From Bacteroidales bacterium (GTDB lineage Bacteria > Bacteroidota > Bacteroidia > Bacteroidales > PUMT01): a stretch of DNA of 32,914 nt. Both the position numbers and the translations under genes were made by a program. A model generated the notes under the pieces. It was not told where the DNA came from and searched no databases. It worked only from the letters and a program-made list of their open reading frames with translations. The stretch is from contig SLPB01000134.1 of assembly GCA_007132225.1 (NCBI GenBank), positions 1 to 32,914 of the forward strand, written 5' to 3'. Below are positions 41 through 18,778 of the stretch, in pieces; within the stretch, counting starts at the first letter, position 1, and each line of letters opens with the position of its first letter.

Positions 41-2515
41 TCAAATAAATAAATTCAGGTTGGCTTCTTCGGTGCGTTCCAGGTAAGTGGCCACGCCTCC
101 GAATTCCACCCCGTCGATAAGTTCTTCCTTTTTTACTCCCATCACATCCATAGACATGGTGCAGGCAATAAACTCAACACCGTTTTCCTGAGCCTGCGCG
201 ATGAGTGATTCCAGTGAATCGATGTTTTTATTTTTCATGATATTGCGCATCATATTGCTACCCATTCCCATCATGTTGAGTTTGGAGAGTTTCAGCCCCT
301 TGCTGTTTTTAGGCAGCATCCTGTCAAACATACTTGCCATAAAGTCCTTCTTTACTGCCGGCTTGTTTGTCTTTTTCAGGATGTTAAGGCCCCAGAACGT
401 AAAAAACAGGGAGACTTTTTTGCCGGTAGATGCGGCACCGTTGGCAATGACAAAAGAGGCCAGGGCCTTGTCAAGGTCGTCGCTGAAAACCACCATGGTT
501 TTGTTATCCGCCACTTTGCCCCCATGTACAGGTTTGTCGGAAGCTGAGCCTTTCTGCAGGCGTGCAGTGATCACCCCGCCAGACTGTGTCACTTCAAGGA
601 GCTTGTTGCCGGTCATATTGGCCCAGGATTTAATATCCGACTCAAAAGCAGGGTCGGTAGCTTTCACTTCAATTACCTGGCCGGGCTGCGCTTCTGCAAC
701 TCTGTTTTTCACCTTGAGAATGGGGCCAGGGCATTGCAGTCCGCAGGCATCAATTTGCAGGGATGCCATCTGTCCGGCAACAGGATGTTTCTCCGCGGCT
801 TTGCCCTGATAGATGTTGTCGTCCAGCCCCACATAGTCTTTCTCGTAAATATCTTCGTTGCTTTGTTTCTGGATGGCAAACTCCCAGGTTTTAATTCCGC
901 CGCTGAGGTTTTCCACCTTGCTGAATCCATGCTGGCTTAGGACGCGGCATGCTACATACCCCCTGAGACCGACACTGCAAAATACAATCACCCGTTTGTC
1001 TCGGGGTACTTCATCCATGCGTTCTCTGAGTTCATCAACGGGGATATTCACTGCACTGTGAATGGTGCCCAGGGCAAACTCGTCGGCGGTACGAACATCC
1101 AGCAACAGTGTATCCTTGTAGCTTGTTTTTTCTATTTCCCGCCAGGAGCATGATTTTACCCTGCCGGTGATTATGTTTTCTGCAGCAAAACCTGCTATGT
1201 TTACCGGGTCTTTAGCTGAAGAGTAAGGGGGAGCATAAGCGTGTTCTATCTCCGTAAGATCGTAGATAGTTCCGCTGTTTTTAATGACAGTGGCCAGCAG
1301 GTCGATACGCTTGTCCACTCCGTCGTAACCCACAATTTGAGCTCCGTAGAGTTTTCCGGTTTCGGGGTGGAATACAATTTTTATACTCATGGGTATGGAA
1401 CCCGGGTAATAACCTGCATGCGATCCGGAGTGGGTAATGGAAGAAGTATAGGGAGTATTGTTTGTGCGCAGTGTCCGGCCCGACACACCAGTGGAGGCCA
1501 CGGTGATATCAAATACTTTGGCAATGGCAGTGTTGATGGAGCCCGGGTATTTTCGCCGGTTATTACCAACGATATTGTCGGCGCAGATGCGTCCCTGTTT
1601 ATTGGCAGGTCCTGCCAGGTAGGTTATCTGGGGGATGCTGGTGACAGGGTTGGGATATTCAATGGCATCCCCTACGGCATAAATATCTGGATGAGAAGTT
1701 TGGAGGTACTCATTTACCTTCACACCACCGGTTTCTCCCAGTTGCAGTCCGCTATTTTTGGCCAGATGGCTGTCGGGACGAACACCAATAGAAAGTATTA
1801 CCAGGTCACTTTGCAATACGCGCCCGCTTTGGAGATTTACAGCGATTCCTCCATTCTCTCTGTGGAAAGAGGAGACTCCGGTTTTCAGGAAAAATTCAAC
1901 GTTTTTGGTTTTCAGGTGCTGGTGCACCAGTGAAGCCATGCTGTAATCCAGCGGGGTCATCACCTGTTCGGCCATTTCCACGATGGAAACAAATATACCC
2001 AGTTGATGAAGGTTCTCGGCCATTTCCAGACCGATAAACCCTGCACCCACCACGATAGCTCTTTTGATTTTATGCTCTTCAATATAGATTTTGATGCGGT
2101 CGGTGTCGGCCACGTTGCGAAGTGTGAAAATTCCTTCGGTGTCAATACCCGGCATATTGGGGCGCACGGGTTCTGCTCCCGGAGAAAGCACCAGCCTGTC
2201 ATAAGATTCTTCGTATTCTTCTCCGGTAGTCAACTTTCTAATGCTGACGGTTCTATGCTCAGGACTGATGGAAACCACCTCCTGAAGAACCCTTACATCG
2301 ATATTGAAGCGCCGGGAAAACGCTTTAGGGGTTTGAACAAAAAGGCTTTCGCGTTCTGCTATGGTACCGCCAATATAGTATGGCAGTCCGCAATTGGCGT
2401 AGCTGATGTGCTCACCTCTTTCCACCATGATGATATTGGCATTTTCATCGTTCCTTCTTAGTCGTGCTGCAGTAGTGGCTCCTCCTGCCACACCGCCTAT
2501 AATAAGTATCTTCAT
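41..2515 (-). CDS. Four-domain CoA-disulfide reductase / rhodanese / TusA / DsrE-like fusion
   Basis: An 824-residue sulfur-transfer flavoprotein, predicted cytosolic. Residues 1-450 are a pyridine nucleotide-disulfide oxidoreductase of the CoA-disulfide reductase type: FAD-binding GGVAGG at 7-12, the single redox cysteine Cys42 in SYANCGLPY, NAD(P)H-binding VGAGFIGLEMAE at 156-167, and YAVGDA at 279. Residues 455-550 are a rhodanese with active Cys513 in CSVGLR. Residues 585-655 are a TusA/SirA domain with Cys595 in the CPGP motif. Residues 672-824 resemble DsrE/DsrF-like proteins, with Cys785 as the probable sulfur carrier. Family knowledge says such domains reduce CoA or glutathione persulfides and relay sulfane sulfur between cysteines; having all four on one chain suggests an internal relay, which is inference. 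The gene is monocistronic as far as the window shows, and a perfect inverted repeat lies about 80 bp upstream. The ATG start gives the dinucleotide fold at residue 3. The exact substrate is not fixed by sequence. Confidence 0.93.
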   Translation of the reverse strand: MKILIIGGVAGGATTAARLRRNDENANIIMVERGEHISYANCGLPYYIGGTIAERESLFVQTPKAFSRRFNIDVRVLQEVVSISPEHRTVSIRKLTTGEEYEESYDRLVLSPGAEPVRPNMPGIDTEGIFTLRNVADTDRIKIYIEEHKIKRAIVVGAGFIGLEMAENLHQLGIFVSIVEMAEQVMTPLDYSMASLVHQHLKTKNVEFFLKTGVSSFHRENGGIAVNLQSGRVLQSDLVILSIGVRPDSHLAKNSGLQLGETGGVKVNEYLQTSHPDIYAVGDAIEYPNPVTSIPQITYLAGPANKQGRICADNIVGNNRRKYPGSINTAIAKVFDITVASTGVSGRTLRTNNTPYTSSITHSGSHAGYYPGSIPMSIKIVFHPETGKLYGAQIVGYDGVDKRIDLLATVIKNSGTIYDLTEIEHAYAPPYSSAKDPVNIAGFAAENIITGRVKSCSWREIEKTSYKDTLLLDVRTADEFALGTIHSAVNIPVDELRERMDEVPRDKRVIVFCSVGLRGYVACRVLSQHGFSKVENLSGGIKTWEFAIQKQSNEDIYEKDYVGLDDNIYQGKAAEKHPVAGQMASLQIDACGLQCPGPILKVKNRVAEAQPGQVIEVKATDPAFESDIKSWANMTGNKLLEVTQSGGVITARLQKGSASDKPVHGGKVADNKTMVVFSDDLDKALASFVIANGAASTGKKVSLFFTFWGLNILKKTNKPAVKKDFMASMFDRMLPKNSKGLKLSKLNMMGMGSNMMRNIMKNKNIDSLESLIAQAQENGVEFIACTMSMDVMGVKKEELIDGVEFGGVATYLERTEEANLNLFI

Positions 2516-2877: not shown

Positions 2878-5800
2878 CTATTGTAACTCGTTCAATATGA
2901 ACTCAATACCCGATACTACCGGTGGGAGAGATCCCTCATGCCACACGAAATCAAGATCCAGATTATCAATCACCTGAACCTCTTTGACTTCAATGCTGTA
3001 AATCCGCCTTGATCCTCCGGTCAGCTCCACAATATCCAAATCATCAATAACTTGCTTTCCCTGAACCATCAGTCCAAAAACACGTTCACCGGCACCGATA
3101 TCTTCTGGCTCGGAGAAATACACCGTCACATCATAACTGTGATTTGCAGAATTTTCCGGTGAGTTGAGTTTCATACTGACATGTTCAATCCCTTTGATAC
3201 CATAGGAAGCCACCCAGGCATGTCCGTCATCGGAGTTTTCAATCCATGTTGCATGATTACGAAACAGTGTCCTCTCCCCATTGGTTTTAATTTCTACGGG
3301 TATCTCGGGCGCCGGCCCCACCAGTGCAGGATATTCGATCCAAAGCACATTTCTCTCCACGTCAAGCCGGTTGCCCGGAGCAGCAAAGTTGATCCCGACC
3401 CGCTTTATAGCACCGGGCTGCGGAGTGGAAAGACTGCTGTAGGTCCACATCTCGGACTCAGGCATATGTACCAGTCCCATAGAAGTCTGGTTTTGATAGC
3501 TGCAAGCACAGGATCGGGTATATTCCGGAGCATTGAGCATGCCATCGGCGACCACCAGGTTATTGGTGCATCCGGGCCTGAATCCGGTCAGATTACCTGT
3601 CATAGCGCCACCGGATAGATCAGTAAATCCGCCTGCTCCTGAACGAAACGTAACCAGATGTTCACTGTAATTTTGTGTGCCACAACGGAGACCACCAAGC
3701 CAGTACCATTTTTCTGATTCCCCGGTAACGGGATGTTTATGCTCGAGCGGCTGACCTGTAAACATATCCAGGGCGCCCTCACCATCACTTAGAATAATCT
3801 GCTCCAGGCTCGCATGAAGACCCAATGGAGCACGACGCTGCGGGTATGATTGTTCCCAGAGCATTTCACCTGTTCGACCCTGGAGTACAATGAGGCGATT
3901 TCTTGGTTCATCCGGGAGGGCACGGCGACGACCAAGATGCCCTGATTGCACCAGAATGTCATGAGGCCCGGAGTAAGCGAGTGCTGTGCCGAAAACCTCA
4001 TCAGTAAAGGACCAAAGAACTTTGCCGGAACGGATATCAAGAGCCCGTATCCCGGGTTCAATATCCGGTTCAATGCCGCGACGGTTCAACATCTCCTGGA
4101 TCTCCTTCGAAAGATGGTCGATGACAAAAACTTTTCCGTTTCCTGCCACAATAGCATTATGCCGAAACCCGTAGCGTGCCTGGTGAACCCATTGAACTTC
4201 GCCTGTGTACCGGTCCATTACAACGATGAACTCACTGGAAGTCGCATTCCAGTTACTTTCTCGTCCGGGCTGACGGTCATCGAACATATGGGGATAAGCG
4301 GCGGCAATCAGCAGGTCATCAACATAACGAATATGTCCCCATCTGATCTGTTCACCTTCCTGAAGTTGTGCTCCATAGGATTTGGTCATCTCCCGGGTAA
4401 AGGGATCACGACCATGCTGCTTAAGCTCCTCCCATTCGGGCATTTCGAAGCTACTTAGCTTCTCACCTGTGGCAAGGTCCAGATGAAGACATTTTTCATC
4501 ATAAATTACATAAACACCATCAGTAGCAGAAGTATAAGGGCTGCCGATAAAATTAGCCCCCGGCTGATTGGGATAGTAAGGCGTTTCTTCAAAATTGGCC
4601 TCCTCTTCACTGGTAAATCTCTCACCGACCCTGATCAGTTTTTTCGCCCACAACTCGATCCCGGTATATACACAACGAGCCGAAACATGGTGGGGACCCA
4701 AAATTATAAGGCGGCCATCCACCACCTGTGGAATCGGCCCGTTCATATGGCGTGGCAGGGCCTTGTGATTGGGTTCGCCACCGAACCAGGCAATGCCCAG
4801 CGGTGCCCTGACGCGTTTGTCGGGGGAAAAAGCCGTATTGCCGGCATCGGCATACTGATGGGTCCAGGAAGCCGAGCCGGGAAGAGCACCGGGACGCGTT
4901 AACAAGGCATAATCGGTGCCATGGGTCAGTTCGGCTTTCTCCAGGCCGGCACGGTCAACCTCTAAGGCAAAACGGTCTTGCGCATCCTTGTCAAGGGCAA
5001 GGTAAGCCTTTCCTCCATAAGGACGAAGCGGATGGAACAGCGCCTCGGCAAAGTCCGCTCCCCTGCCAATACCAGCCGCCTCCGGATCTTCCGATACAAT
5101 CAGGCTCGCTATATAGGGCGGCAGACGGTAACTGGTAACATCGCCCTGCTGCACGGCTACCCGATGGCCATAAATTCCGGCATTCTTGTAGCGATTACGA
5201 AACTCAGCGACTTTCTCCGGGTCGGGATCAAATGCCGTGATATGCAATTCCGACTGCTGCAACAACTCATCAAGTAAACGGCCCGAACCGATACCGTACA
5301 TCAAACCATAACCGCCCCTGGGATCCAGTTCTTCCAGCAATCCCCGAGCCTTGCGGGCCCAATCCCCACCTTCAGTTTCGAGCGTGCGGGGCAGATACTC
5401 ATGTACAATGGTTTCGCGCTCGCCTGAACCAAAACAGTATATACGTCCTTCTTCTGTCGTAACAAACAGGCGGCCATGAGCGGCGATCATGCTGAAAACC
5501 TCGCCGTCAACCGTTTTAGTCCATGCCAGTTCCGCCGGCCGGTCTGCTTCCGGTTCCGGTACGTTCACGGCATAAATACGGCCGTTTTCACCACTTCCAT
5601 AAAGTGTTGGCCCCGCCTTGAGATGAAGACGCTGCAGTCCTTCAATCTTACCGGATGACCAAAGTTCCCGGAGTTCATAATAGTTGCTGAGTGCCCTTCG
5701 GCTAAGCCGGTCACTGACTCCGGGAGCCCGCCCCGAGGCATCCGGCATTCCTTCAATCAATGCACGGCCGTAGCGATCAACCAGTGGTTCGGGCGGGTCT

Positions 5801-6855
5801 TCGCCTGTGAGTTCCAGTTCCGTGGCATATGCCATAATGCGTTCCCGGGCCGGATCCACTCCTATCAGGGCTTCTTCCGTGGTCAGATCAACATCGACCG
5901 TATTGAACTGGGCTCCGTCGACAGTGGTATACATATGGGTAGCCCGGTAATCCCGGACATTGAAAAACCAGTCACCACGGGAAAAGACACTATGACCACC
6001 AGCACCCTTGGTTGTGGTATGCGTGGCCACATTAAAAAACTGGAGGTCGCCTGTATGACGATTGAACACGGCTGGTGCGGTGCGCCCGCCGGGCACAATC
6101 AGCTGGTCACCCTGCACGGTAAACTGTCCCTGGGGCACAACCCCGCCAAAAGAATAATACCGCTTGGAATCAACGATCAAATCACTTTGGCTGCCGGAAT
6201 TGACCCATTGAACTTCAGCTGTCACTGCATCAATGGCATAGATGTAAATCCCTTCGTGCGGCCAAAGGCCGGCGGCAAAGTAAAGGGTGCCATCCTTGAT
6301 GACCGGTCCGCCACGTGCGGGCCACATGCTGATAATTCTTTCGTTGCCCAAAACAAGCCGGTTGTTTGGAGCGGCCTGGAATTTCCAGATTTTCTCCCCG
6401 CTTCTGCTGTCCAAGCAGTATAAGTGACCGTCATCGGAAACAAAATACAACTTCCCTTCGTGATACAGGGGAGCAAGCCTAACCGGTCCGTCTGCATGAT
6501 AGCGCCACAACTCTTCTCCTGTTTTGACTGAATAGGCGCTTACCTTGTCGGCTACCATCGACGATACGAACAACATGCCGCCGGCCGCCACCGGCGCGTA
6601 GGATTTATCGAAGGCCAGCTTTTCATAATCATCCATTTGCCATGGCCAGGCCCTTTGCGGAGCTTGCATCTCCCTTACCCAGTGAAGGTGCAGCTCACTG
6701 GAAAGGCCATAAGTCGAGGAGGCGCTCCGGTTCTGATCATAACGCCACATCGGCCAGTCTCCATCATTTGAAACCGGGGTGAAAATAATAAATAAAACCA
6801 GAGCCATCGCAGCAATGACTGCCAATAATATCAGTACAATTGAATTCTTTTTCAT
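2878..6855 (-). CDS. Membrane-anchored PQQ-type beta-propeller protein with methyltransferase-like and malectin-like domains
   Basis: A very large protein of 1325 residues from the chosen ATG; an upstream ATG at 6897 would add 14 hydrophilic residues ahead of the signal anchor, so the later start is preferred. Residues 5-26 form a hydrophobic signal anchor. Residues about 35-480 are PQQ-like propeller blades, with repeated patterns such as GEELWRYHADG and GEKIWKFQA, each followed by LYCLD- or IYAID-type strands. Residues about 496-656 look like a SAM-methyltransferase Rossmann domain: glycine loop YGIGSGRLL followed by the acidic strand end AFDPD. A second propeller covers about 665-1120. The last 160 residues resemble a malectin domain: RVGINFAAPG, then YDVTVYFSEPE, GERVFGLMVQGK and a VVSGIEFIL end. 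It presumably faces the periplasm and binds carbohydrate or a redox cofactor; no reaction can be assigned. The gene is clearly GC-richer than the housekeeping block downstream. No enzyme neighbours explain its role. Confidence 0.85.
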   Translation of the reverse strand: MKKNSIVLILLAVIAAMALVLFIIFTPVSNDGDWPMWRYDQNRSASSTYGLSSELHLHWVREMQAPQRAWPWQMDDYEKLAFDKSYAPVAAGGMLFVSSMVADKVSAYSVKTGEELWRYHADGPVRLAPLYHEGKLYFVSDDGHLYCLDSRSGEKIWKFQAAPNNRLVLGNERIISMWPARGGPVIKDGTLYFAAGLWPHEGIYIYAIDAVTAEVQWVNSGSQSDLIVDSKRYYSFGGVVPQGQFTVQGDQLIVPGGRTAPAVFNRHTGDLQFFNVATHTTTKGAGGHSVFSRGDWFFNVRDYRATHMYTTVDGAQFNTVDVDLTTEEALIGVDPARERIMAYATELELTGEDPPEPLVDRYGRALIEGMPDASGRAPGVSDRLSRRALSNYYELRELWSSGKIEGLQRLHLKAGPTLYGSGENGRIYAVNVPEPEADRPAELAWTKTVDGEVFSMIAAHGRLFVTTEEGRIYCFGSGERETIVHEYLPRTLETEGGDWARKARGLLEELDPRGGYGLMYGIGSGRLLDELLQQSELHITAFDPDPEKVAEFRNRYKNAGIYGHRVAVQQGDVTSYRLPPYIASLIVSEDPEAAGIGRGADFAEALFHPLRPYGGKAYLALDKDAQDRFALEVDRAGLEKAELTHGTDYALLTRPGALPGSASWTHQYADAGNTAFSPDKRVRAPLGIAWFGGEPNHKALPRHMNGPIPQVVDGRLIILGPHHVSARCVYTGIELWAKKLIRVGERFTSEEEANFEETPYYPNQPGANFIGSPYTSATDGVYVIYDEKCLHLDLATGEKLSSFEMPEWEELKQHGRDPFTREMTKSYGAQLQEGEQIRWGHIRYVDDLLIAAAYPHMFDDRQPGRESNWNATSSEFIVVMDRYTGEVQWVHQARYGFRHNAIVAGNGKVFVIDHLSKEIQEMLNRRGIEPDIEPGIRALDIRSGKVLWSFTDEVFGTALAYSGPHDILVQSGHLGRRRALPDEPRNRLIVLQGRTGEMLWEQSYPQRRAPLGLHASLEQIILSDGEGALDMFTGQPLEHKHPVTGESEKWYWLGGLRCGTQNYSEHLVTFRSGAGGFTDLSGGAMTGNLTGFRPGCTNNLVVADGMLNAPEYTRSCACSYQNQTSMGLVHMPESEMWTYSSLSTPQPGAIKRVGINFAAPGNRLDVERNVLWIEYPALVGPAPEIPVEIKTNGERTLFRNHATWIENSDDGHAWVASYGIKGIEHVSMKLNSPENSANHSYDVTVYFSEPEDIGAGERVFGLMVQGKQVIDDLDIVELTGGSRRIYSIEVKEVQVIDNLDLDFVWHEGSLPPVVSGIEFILNELQ

Positions 6856-7008
6856 GTGTTTTAATTTTTCTTGCAAGCGGTCATATGTTGGCCCCATGAT
6901 TTAATCAAGGACTTGTATATCTATACCTTGCCATGAATGCTTCATCTTTGATGTATACCCACATATAAAATTCATTCTCAAATTTAACTCTGCAAGTAGT
7001 TGATTTAC

Positions 7009-18343: not shown

Positions 18344-18778
18344 ATGATAATAAACAATTCAAAGTTAAAAATAATATTTGTCATTTCCTTGATTTTTATC
18401 ACATTTAATGGATGCGATGATTATGATGACTGGATCCCTAATGTACGGGTTGATCAAACAATCAGTCTTAACAGATTAGCCAATCTTGGACATTTACAGG
18501 CAGATATTTTGCCAGGAGGTGTTAACGGAATCATTATTTTCAGACTGGAAGAAGAAAAATTCCTTGCATATGACCGGACCTGTCCATATCAACCTTCGGA
18601 AAATTGTGCGGTGGAGATCGAAGAGGTTGAGCTTTTTGCAAAATGCCCGTGCTGCGAATCAATATTTGTTATTTCCGAGGGAGGATACCCCAGTGAAGGT
18701 CCTGCAGTCCAGAAAGGCAGGCCATTGAAGCAATACAGAACATCTGTTTCCAACAGACTTCTGCGCATTTATAACTGA
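18344..18778 (+). CDS. Rieske-like lipoprotein with cysteine-only ligand candidates
   Basis: A 144-residue protein with an N-terminal hydrophobic segment ending FNGC; Cys24 is the likely lipidated residue, although the lipobox is imperfect. The fold pattern of Rieske [2Fe-2S] domains is visible: DRTCPYQ at 77-83, where canonical proteins have CxH, and KCPCCESIF at 100-108, where they have CxxH followed by G-S. Both ligand histidines are absent. Cysteines are at 80, 88, 101, 103 and 104. GGYPSEGPAVQKGRPLKQY after the second motif matches the proline loop and GPA..PL ending of Rieske proteins. It may bind a cluster through cysteines only, bind another metal, or have lost the cluster. It precedes lplA on the same strand. 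Confidence 0.75.
   Translation: MIINNSKLKIIFVISLIFITFNGCDDYDDWIPNVRVDQTISLNRLANLGHLQADILPGGVNGIIIFRLEEEKFLAYDRTCPYQPSENCAVEIEEVELFAKCPCCESIFVISEGGYPSEGPAVQKGRPLKQYRTSVSNRLLRIYN

What the first reader, a model, noticed from the sequence alone, without database searches (positions are those of the whole stretch)
2878..6855. Propeller-methyltransferase-propeller-malectin fusion of 1325 residues
A Rossmann-type SAM-binding-like domain (YGIGSG ... AFDPD) sits between two PQQ-type propellers in a protein that carries a signal anchor, so this normally cytosolic fold would be on the periplasmic side, where SAM is not expected. A malectin-like carbohydrate-binding end is added. Function is unknown. 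Similar combinations are, as far as I recall, more typical of Planctomycetes-type bacteria.
Basis: partly seen in the sequence, partly recalled or inferred. Interest (0 to 1): 0.65.

Follow-up and report, generated by a model that had tools for sequence, protein, structure and literature searches.

The report
Exported propeller protein with methyltransferase-fold core
The window holds one copy of a large, apparently undescribed family of exported bacterial proteins in which a domain folded like a methyl-transferring enzyme sits between two propellers; in several phyla these proteins occur together with the same small cysteine-bearing protein and an energy-driven membrane transporter, which points to a shared cell-envelope machine rather than a freak fusion.

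Summary
Four domains pass Pfam cut-offs: propeller A, Methyltransf_25, propeller B, malectin. AlphaFold2 of the centre (pLDDT 94.6) matches class I SAM-methyltransferases (Z 16.7). An N-terminal hydrophobic anchor suggests export. The usual motif-I acid is absent in 81 of 81 aligned members and GxGxG is kept in 38, so extracytoplasmic methyl transfer is not supported, though not excluded. Four propeller-B cysteines are kept in at least 80 of 81. New here: relatives are linked to a secreted thioredoxin-fold-like protein ('CPV'), an FtsX-type permease and a LolD-like ATPase; in 99 planctomycete genomes the family and CPV occur together in 17, the family alone in 1, CPV alone in 0. All three extracytoplasmic parts carry a nearly invariant CxC. 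Most likely they form an ATP-driven envelope system handling a thiol-bound cargo, the Rossmann domain being a binding or structural module. The window copy stands alone, is GC-atypical and closest to a Latescibacterota protein. Function is inferred.

The parts
2878..6855 (-). AMB protein (propeller A - Methyltransferase-fold - propeller B - malectin), 1325 aa plus stop
   Evidence: alternative start at 6897
6781..6855 (-). N-terminal hydrophobic signal anchor / export signal (residues 1-25)
   Evidence: sequence; family hydropathy
5416..6759 (-). Propeller A, PQQ_2/BamB-like repeats (residues 33-480), with near-invariant C147 (6415-6417)
4864..5394 (-). Class I SAM-methyltransferase-fold domain (residues 488-664): GIGSG loop kept, motif-I acid absent (M519), beta-2 acid D543 kept
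3316..4863 (-). Propeller B (residues 665-1180)
   Evidence: Pfam PQQ_2 29.2 bits, cut-off 27.6; not folded
3502..3684 (-). Cysteine signature of propeller B: C1058, C1096, C1116-x-C1118
   Evidence: 81, 80, 80 and 80 of 81 members; four cysteines also in 5 of 5 of the permuted family
2881..3288 (-). Malectin domain (residues 1190-1325)
   Evidence: Pfam 43.2 bits, cut-off 23

Best explanation
The gene encodes one member of a large exported family (here 'AMB'). Its core is a methyltransferase-fold (Rossmann) domain followed by propeller B with a four-cysteine signature; propeller A and a malectin domain are added. AMB most likely works outside the cytoplasm together with a secreted, C-terminally anchored thioredoxin-fold-like protein (CPV), an FtsX/MacB-type permease and a LolD-like ATPase. 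SHOWN here: the fold of the centre, a hydrophobic N-terminus, a recurrent gene neighbourhood, one gene fusion, co-occurrence over genomes, a conserved CxC in all three extracytoplasmic parts. INFERRED: ATP hydrolysis drives the permease, which handles a thiol-binding cargo (a metal ion, a sulfur species or a redox-active thiol); the CxC of the permease, of CPV and of AMB propeller B pass it on or process it; the methyltransferase-fold domain binds a ligand or is a structural wedge and no longer transfers methyl groups; malectin tethers the protein to glycan. The window copy is a stand-alone, probably horizontally acquired paralogue that would use the system encoded elsewhere in the genome (CPV, FtsX, LolD and a TonB-dependent receptor on contig C50).
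For: Domains and fold. Neighbourhood: within 8 kb of AMB in 78 distinct loci CPV 21, FtsX 11, LolD 10; of 35 loci with at least 4 kb on both sides, CPV 11; the 21 loci carry eight phylum names and one has none (titles). One 1587-aa frame holds AMB and CPV (L061). Of 57 loci without CPV nearby 41 were followed up; 35 of their 40 genomes encode CPV elsewhere, two of these by weak matches. 99 planctomycete genomes: both 17, AMB only 1, CPV only 0, neither 81, Fisher p 3e-18; the FtsX subfamily in 15 of 18 AMB-positive and 2 of 81 AMB-negative. 60 relatives of the window, own genome included: both 8, AMB only 1, CPV only 1, neither 50. CxC: FtsX 13 of 13 aligned rows, between TM1 and TM2 by hydropathy of one row; CPV C278 27 and C280 28 of 28 rows; AMB 80 of 81. 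CPV fold. Motif-I acid absent in 81 of 81. Own-genome operon L027.
Against: No experiment; cargo unknown. CPV was not found in 5 of the 40 genomes, and these include that of L038, the nearest relative of the window protein, and that of L068 from the same clade (completeness unknown). In Verrucomicrobiota the link is looser: CPV in 5 of 96, AMB in 2 of 96, both in 2; of the three with CPV alone one has a clear member of the permuted family, one only partial weaker matches, one none with 36 of 50 candidates scored. FtsX was not found in 3 of 18 AMB-positive planctomycetes and was found in 2 without AMB. The planctomycete and verrucomicrobial samples are centred on known carriers (G086, G094), and G089 was known too; Fisher tests ignore shared ancestry. 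The window copy has no partner genes beside it. The CPV model is moderate (pLDDT 70.4) and its Foldseek matches weak (E 2e-4, TM under 0.2 by query length). The CxC may be structural. P0001 keeps GIGSG and D543, so SAM binding by this copy is not excluded. ModA-like genes near 7 of 78 loci hint at an oxyanion instead. A sulfatase-like cluster is nearly as frequent near the family as FtsX (15 against 17 loci).
Confidence: 0.5

Rival explanations
1. AMB is a real extracytoplasmic SAM-dependent methyltransferase; SAM (or another methyl donor) is exported to it, perhaps by the FtsX-LolD transporter.
For: Fold match Z 16.7; GxGxG kept in 38 of 81, all 38 with the beta-2 acid; beta-2 acid in 77 of 81; an ABC transporter in the operon of relatives.
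Against: Motif-I acid absent in 81 of 81; glycine loop broken in 43 of 81; no periplasmic SAM pool is known to me (recalled); one paper search for 'periplasmic methyltransferase' with SAM listed nothing.
Confidence: 0.07
2. AMB is a polysaccharide-degradation accessory or binding protein: propellers and malectin bind (sulfated) glycans, the methyltransferase-like domain is a spacer.
For: Malectin domain; the paralogue in L025 is flanked by sulfatase-like frames on both sides (by eye), and a sulfatase-like cluster (named by eye) is fourth in the neighbour list with 15 loci.
Against: Sulfatases are many in these phyla (recalled), so their presence is weak evidence and no background was measured; CPV, ABC ATPase and FtsX rank above them; propeller B keeps many charged and cysteine residues.
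Confidence: 0.2
3. AMB is a quinoprotein: one propeller binds PQQ and oxidises a substrate.
For: PF01011 PQQ propeller 45.6 bits, cut-off 26.7.
Against: TIGR03075 PQQ alcohol dehydrogenase 40.4 bits against a cut-off of 480.05; TIGR03074 17.1 against 832.65. PQQ-binding residues were not checked one by one.
Confidence: 0.05
4. The system takes up or inserts an oxyanion or its metal (molybdate/tungstate), with AMB as receiver or maturation factor.
For: ModA-like proteins above the curated cut-off (103.1, 99.9, 65.9 bits against 62.5), Mo/W-type permease and ATPase and MoeB/ThiF-like proteins in AMB/CPV loci; ModA-like in 7, ModB-like in 5, ThiF-like in 3 of 78 loci.
Against: A minority of loci; permease, ATPase and ThiF matches lie below their equivalog cut-offs; ModA-type proteins may bind other ligands; co-occurrence over genomes was not tested.
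Confidence: 0.13

Closest known systems
Class I SAM-dependent methyltransferases (Methyltransf_25; 3dlc, 1xxl)
   Same: Fold; acid at the end of beta-2; GxGxG loop in P0001 and 37 other members; a kept RPYGG before the fifth strand
   Different: Hydrophobic export signal; embedded between propellers; motif-I acid missing in all 81 aligned members
BamB / PQQ_2 propellers
   Same: Repeat type
   Different: TIGR03300 49.2 bits against cut-off 285.2; two propellers with a Rossmann domain between; four-cysteine signature
FtsX/MacB/LolCDE-type ABC systems
   Same: FtsX Pfam domain (70.5 bits, cut-off 25.5) and ABC ATPase in the operon of relatives
   Different: Permease subfamily with CxC in its extracytoplasmic part and with CPV and AMB as linked genes
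NosDFYL (copper/sulfur delivery to nitrous oxide reductase; recalled, not compared here)
   Same: Working analogy only: periplasmic repeat protein, permease, ATPase and an anchored Cys protein
   Different: Different permease class as I recall; no sequence relation tested

Membership tests
Class I SAM-dependent methyltransferase | Rossmann-like class I methyltransferase fold | tested here: met
Class I SAM-dependent methyltransferase | GxGxG loop | tested here: met
   G521-I-G523-S-G525 in P0001; 38 of 81 members
Class I SAM-dependent methyltransferase | Acidic residue of motif I, two before the first glycine | tested here: not met
   M519; 0 of 81 members acidic at 519 or 520; the alignment to 3dlc places D there
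Class I SAM-dependent methyltransferase | Binds SAM and transfers methyl | not testable with these tools
   needs protein
PQQ-dependent dehydrogenase | Curated model TIGR03075 or TIGR03074 at cut-off | tested here: not met
PQQ-dependent dehydrogenase | PQQ-binding residues | not tested
   no residue-level comparison was made
BamB | Curated model TIGR03300 at cut-off | tested here: not met
   49.2 of 285.2 bits
Malectin domain | Pfam PF11721 at gathering score | tested here: met
   43.2 bits, cut-off 23
Malectin domain | Carbohydrate binding | not testable with these tools
   needs protein
FtsX/MacB-type ABC transporter (partner genes) | FtsX permease domain plus ABC ATPase | tested here: met
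   L027 proteins
FtsX/MacB-type ABC transporter (partner genes) | Coupled physically to AMB and CPV | not testable with these tools
   only neighbourhood, fusion of AMB with CPV, and co-occurrence
Thioredoxin fold (partner CPV) | Thioredoxin-like fold | tested here: inconclusive
   Trx Z 9.5, rmsd 2.5 over 99 residues; Foldseek E 2.3e-4 to Mpd1p, low TM; no PDB sequence match up to E 5
NosDFYL-like metal/sulfur delivery | Sequence relation of the parts | not tested
   recalled analogy

The most novel reading that the evidence does not exclude
A widespread but undescribed envelope machine in which an ATP-driven FtsX/LolD transporter, a thioredoxin-fold-like protein and a giant propeller/methyltransferase-fold protein hand a thiol-bound cargo (metal or sulfur) along a relay of CxC motifs, one in each extracytoplasmic part, with the methyltransferase fold put to a new use outside the cytoplasm.
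Probability: 0.28. Interest if true: 0.78.

Novelty: new variant of a known kind. Interest (0 to 1): 0.6.

Why it matters
A fold that normally uses SAM in the cytoplasm has been kept in an exported protein family with eleven phylum labels and with recurrent partner genes. The co-occurrence, and a CxC in each extracytoplasmic part, give a testable handle on an envelope system of Planctomycetota, Verrucomicrobiota and others that none of the paper listings I searched appears to describe (listings only, open-licence papers only).

Tried and rejected
Considered and rejected: (1) chance frame or chimera: conserved over its length in 81 members. (2) Centre is a propeller blade: Pfam, AlphaFold2 and fold search say methyltransferase fold. 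(3) PQQ enzyme or BamB orthologue: curated cut-offs missed. (4) Local operon logic for the window copy: neighbours are a CoA-disulfide-reductase-like gene, a TrmH-like gene and LepA (named by eye, not searched); no partner genes.

Led nowhere: tblastn of P0001 in plasmids, no match; CPV against Pfam, best match E 0.0073 to DUF1269 in 1 of 17 members, and against PDB sequences, none up to E 5; paper searches for the family (searches listed nothing; one listed 2, 59 listed 6, 77 listed 1, 64 held 24 and listed 20). I judged those by title and start of abstract and opened no paper, so a mention inside one, for instance in the planctomycete membrane-coat paper PMC2799638 listed, is not excluded. 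PMC6704655 and PMC6146748 (soda lakes) were likewise seen as listing only.

The 28 CPV rows still include L043 and L108, and one row (L054) starts late. The FtsX alignment holds 13 chosen rows; the cluster spans 17 loci. One search took 41 of 57 loci without nearby CPV (40 genomes). In some searches at most 6 candidate places per genome were scored, at most 36. AMB-positive means best E at most 2.4e-28 (next 6.3e-10); for G007 it rests on a 132-aa frame. An alignment of ModA-like proteins (A6) was made but not searched.
Full report
WHAT IS THERE. The plus strand of 2878-6855 is closed; the minus strand encodes 1325 residues from the ATG at 6855, or 1339 from an ATG at 6897. From the N-terminus: a hydrophobic anchor; propeller A (PQQ_2 76.9 bits); a methyltransferase-like domain (Methyltransf_25 31.2 bits alone); propeller B (PQQ_2 29.2); malectin (43.2); all at or above Pfam cut-offs.

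THE CENTRE. Of 81 family members, 61 match Methyltransf_25 at E <= 0.01. A profile of the 81 finds 3dlc, a putative SAM-dependent methyltransferase, at E 2.5e-6. AlphaFold2 gives pLDDT 94.6, Foldseek 3dlc TMq 0.74, VIA-align 1xxl Z 16.8 (rmsd 2.5, 151 aligned) and 3dlc Z 16.7 (rmsd 3.0, 166 aligned). In the 81-row alignment the residue that matches the motif-I acid is never acidic (0 of 81); G521 is kept in 78, G523 in 46, G525 in 52, all three in 38; the beta-2 acid (D543) in 77. Strongly kept are R553 (79), R565 (76), Y581 (79) and R611, P612, Y613, G614, G615 (79, 81, 75, 78, 80). P0001 is among the members with a whole loop. I read this as a domain kept for binding or structure rather than for methyl transfer; that is a judgement.

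EXPORT. MKKN and about twenty hydrophobic residues, then DWPMWR; 79 of 81 members have a strongly hydrophobic stretch before it. No signal-peptide program was available.

FAMILY. Titles name Planctomycetota, Verrucomicrobiota, Kiritimatiellota, Armatimonadota/WS1/Zipacnadia, Hydrogenedentota, Latescibacterota, Balneolales, Spirochaetales, Bacteroidales and Puteibacter, KSB1, Omnitrophota, Acidobacteria and Bryobacterales; the tree tool counts eleven phylum labels, with 10 of 81 rows unlabelled. In that tree (quick IQ-TREE, SH-aLRT only) the window protein is sister to the Latescibacterota protein L038 (67% over 1207 columns, support 100), then Hydrogenedentota L044 (100), inside a set of eight (100) whose seven other members all come from MAGs with CSSed in their names and carry five phylum labels. 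CSSed as Cock Soda Lake sediment is my recollection; one search lists papers on that lake, which I did not open. The gene has 52.2% G+C against 40.8% for the rest of the window. This speaks for horizontal spread in one kind of habitat, although binning errors in MAGs cannot be ruled out.

TWO ORDERS. The own genome also has a full-length paralogue (43%, in L025), a contig-end fragment (L027) and two proteins in the order methyltransferase-like - propeller B - propeller A (L025 10496-13726, L026 8139-11171). Four cysteines of propeller B are in both orders: 80 or 81 of 81, and 5 of 5. The methyltransferase-like domain plus cysteine propeller thus looks like the core of a superfamily.

PARTNERS. 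Clustering of neighbouring frames put three families on top: CPV (26 loci), an ABC ATPase (19, of which some are other ABC proteins) and an FtsX permease (17), followed by a sulfatase-like cluster (15, named by eye). Within 8 kb of AMB in 78 distinct loci: CPV 21, FtsX 11, LolD 10, ModA-like 7, ModB-like 5, ThiF-like 3; many loci are cut by contig ends, and of 35 with at least 4 kb on both sides 11 have CPV. In L061 AMB and CPV share one frame of 1587 aa. Of 57 loci without CPV nearby I followed 41, lying in 40 genomes: 35 encode CPV elsewhere (two by weak matches, E 6.8e-9 and 3.9e-7), 5 do not, among them the genomes of L038 and L068. In 99 planctomycete genomes AMB (E <= 1e-60) occurs in 18 and CPV in 17, and all 17 are among the 18; the exception, G129, has a weak match to propeller A only. 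The FtsX subfamily (E <= 1e-25) is in 15 of the 18 and in 2 of the 81 others. In 96 verrucomicrobial genomes CPV is in 5, AMB in 2, both in 2; of the three others G225 has a clear member of the permuted family, G211 partial weaker matches, G219 none; 14 further genomes without AMB or CPV at these thresholds showed none, candidates capped. In 60 relatives of the window both are in 8, one alone in 2, neither in 50. Fisher tests ignore shared ancestry, and the samples are centred on known carriers.

CPV AND THE CxC. CPV looks secreted, has a C-terminal hydrophobic helix, a cysteine at the probable start of the mature protein (27 of 28 rows) and CxC further on (27 and 28 of 28). It has no convincing Pfam match and no PDB sequence match. 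Its model (pLDDT 70.4; core good, tail disordered) resembles thioredoxin folds, by Foldseek in tandem as in PDI, weakly. The permease has a CxC in 13 of 13 aligned rows, between TM1 and TM2 by hydropathy of one row, which in this transporter class is outside the cytoplasm (recalled). AMB has C1116-x-C1118. That three otherwise different partners each keep a CxC is the strongest clue to chemistry: thiol, metal or sulfur handling.

OXYANION LINK. In several AMB/CPV loci lie ModA-like proteins above the curated cut-off; Mo/W-type permease and ATPase and MoeB/ThiF-like proteins there lie below their equivalog cut-offs. This is a minority of loci and is kept as a rival.

WINDOW COPY. It has no partners next to it; the genome holds one CPV match, in a locus with FtsX, LolD, TonB-dependent receptor and an AMB fragment on contig C50.

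VERDICT. Observation confirmed (minus strand); interpretation partly supported: real fold, probably exported, but a family hallmark and probably not a working methyltransferase. The larger result is the linked set of envelope genes. Its function is inferred, not shown.

Noticed in passing
window 41-2515 (minus): Neighbour resembling a CoA-disulfide reductase with rhodanese, TusA and DsrE-like parts (by eye); its G+C (48.8%, GC3 53.1%) is also above the window's, so it may have come with the AMB gene.
   Followed up: no
L025 1-14717: The own-genome paralogue and a permuted-order relative lie on one contig among five sulfatase-like frames (by eye).
   Followed up: partly
L061 808-5568: AMB and CPV fused in a single 1587-aa frame.
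   Followed up: partly
L039 1357-19690: Balneolales locus with three AMB frames (the first two overlap and may be one interrupted gene), CPV, ModABC-like genes, two MoeB/ThiF-like genes, and JAMM-like and cysteine-synthase-like genes (the last two by eye).
   Followed up: partly
window 18344-18778 (plus): Small exported Rieske-like protein in which the usual histidines seem replaced (TCPYQ and CPCC); judged by eye only.
   Followed up: no
L114 15009-18053; L055 34-3108: Permuted-order relatives close to AMB genes in other genomes.
   Followed up: no
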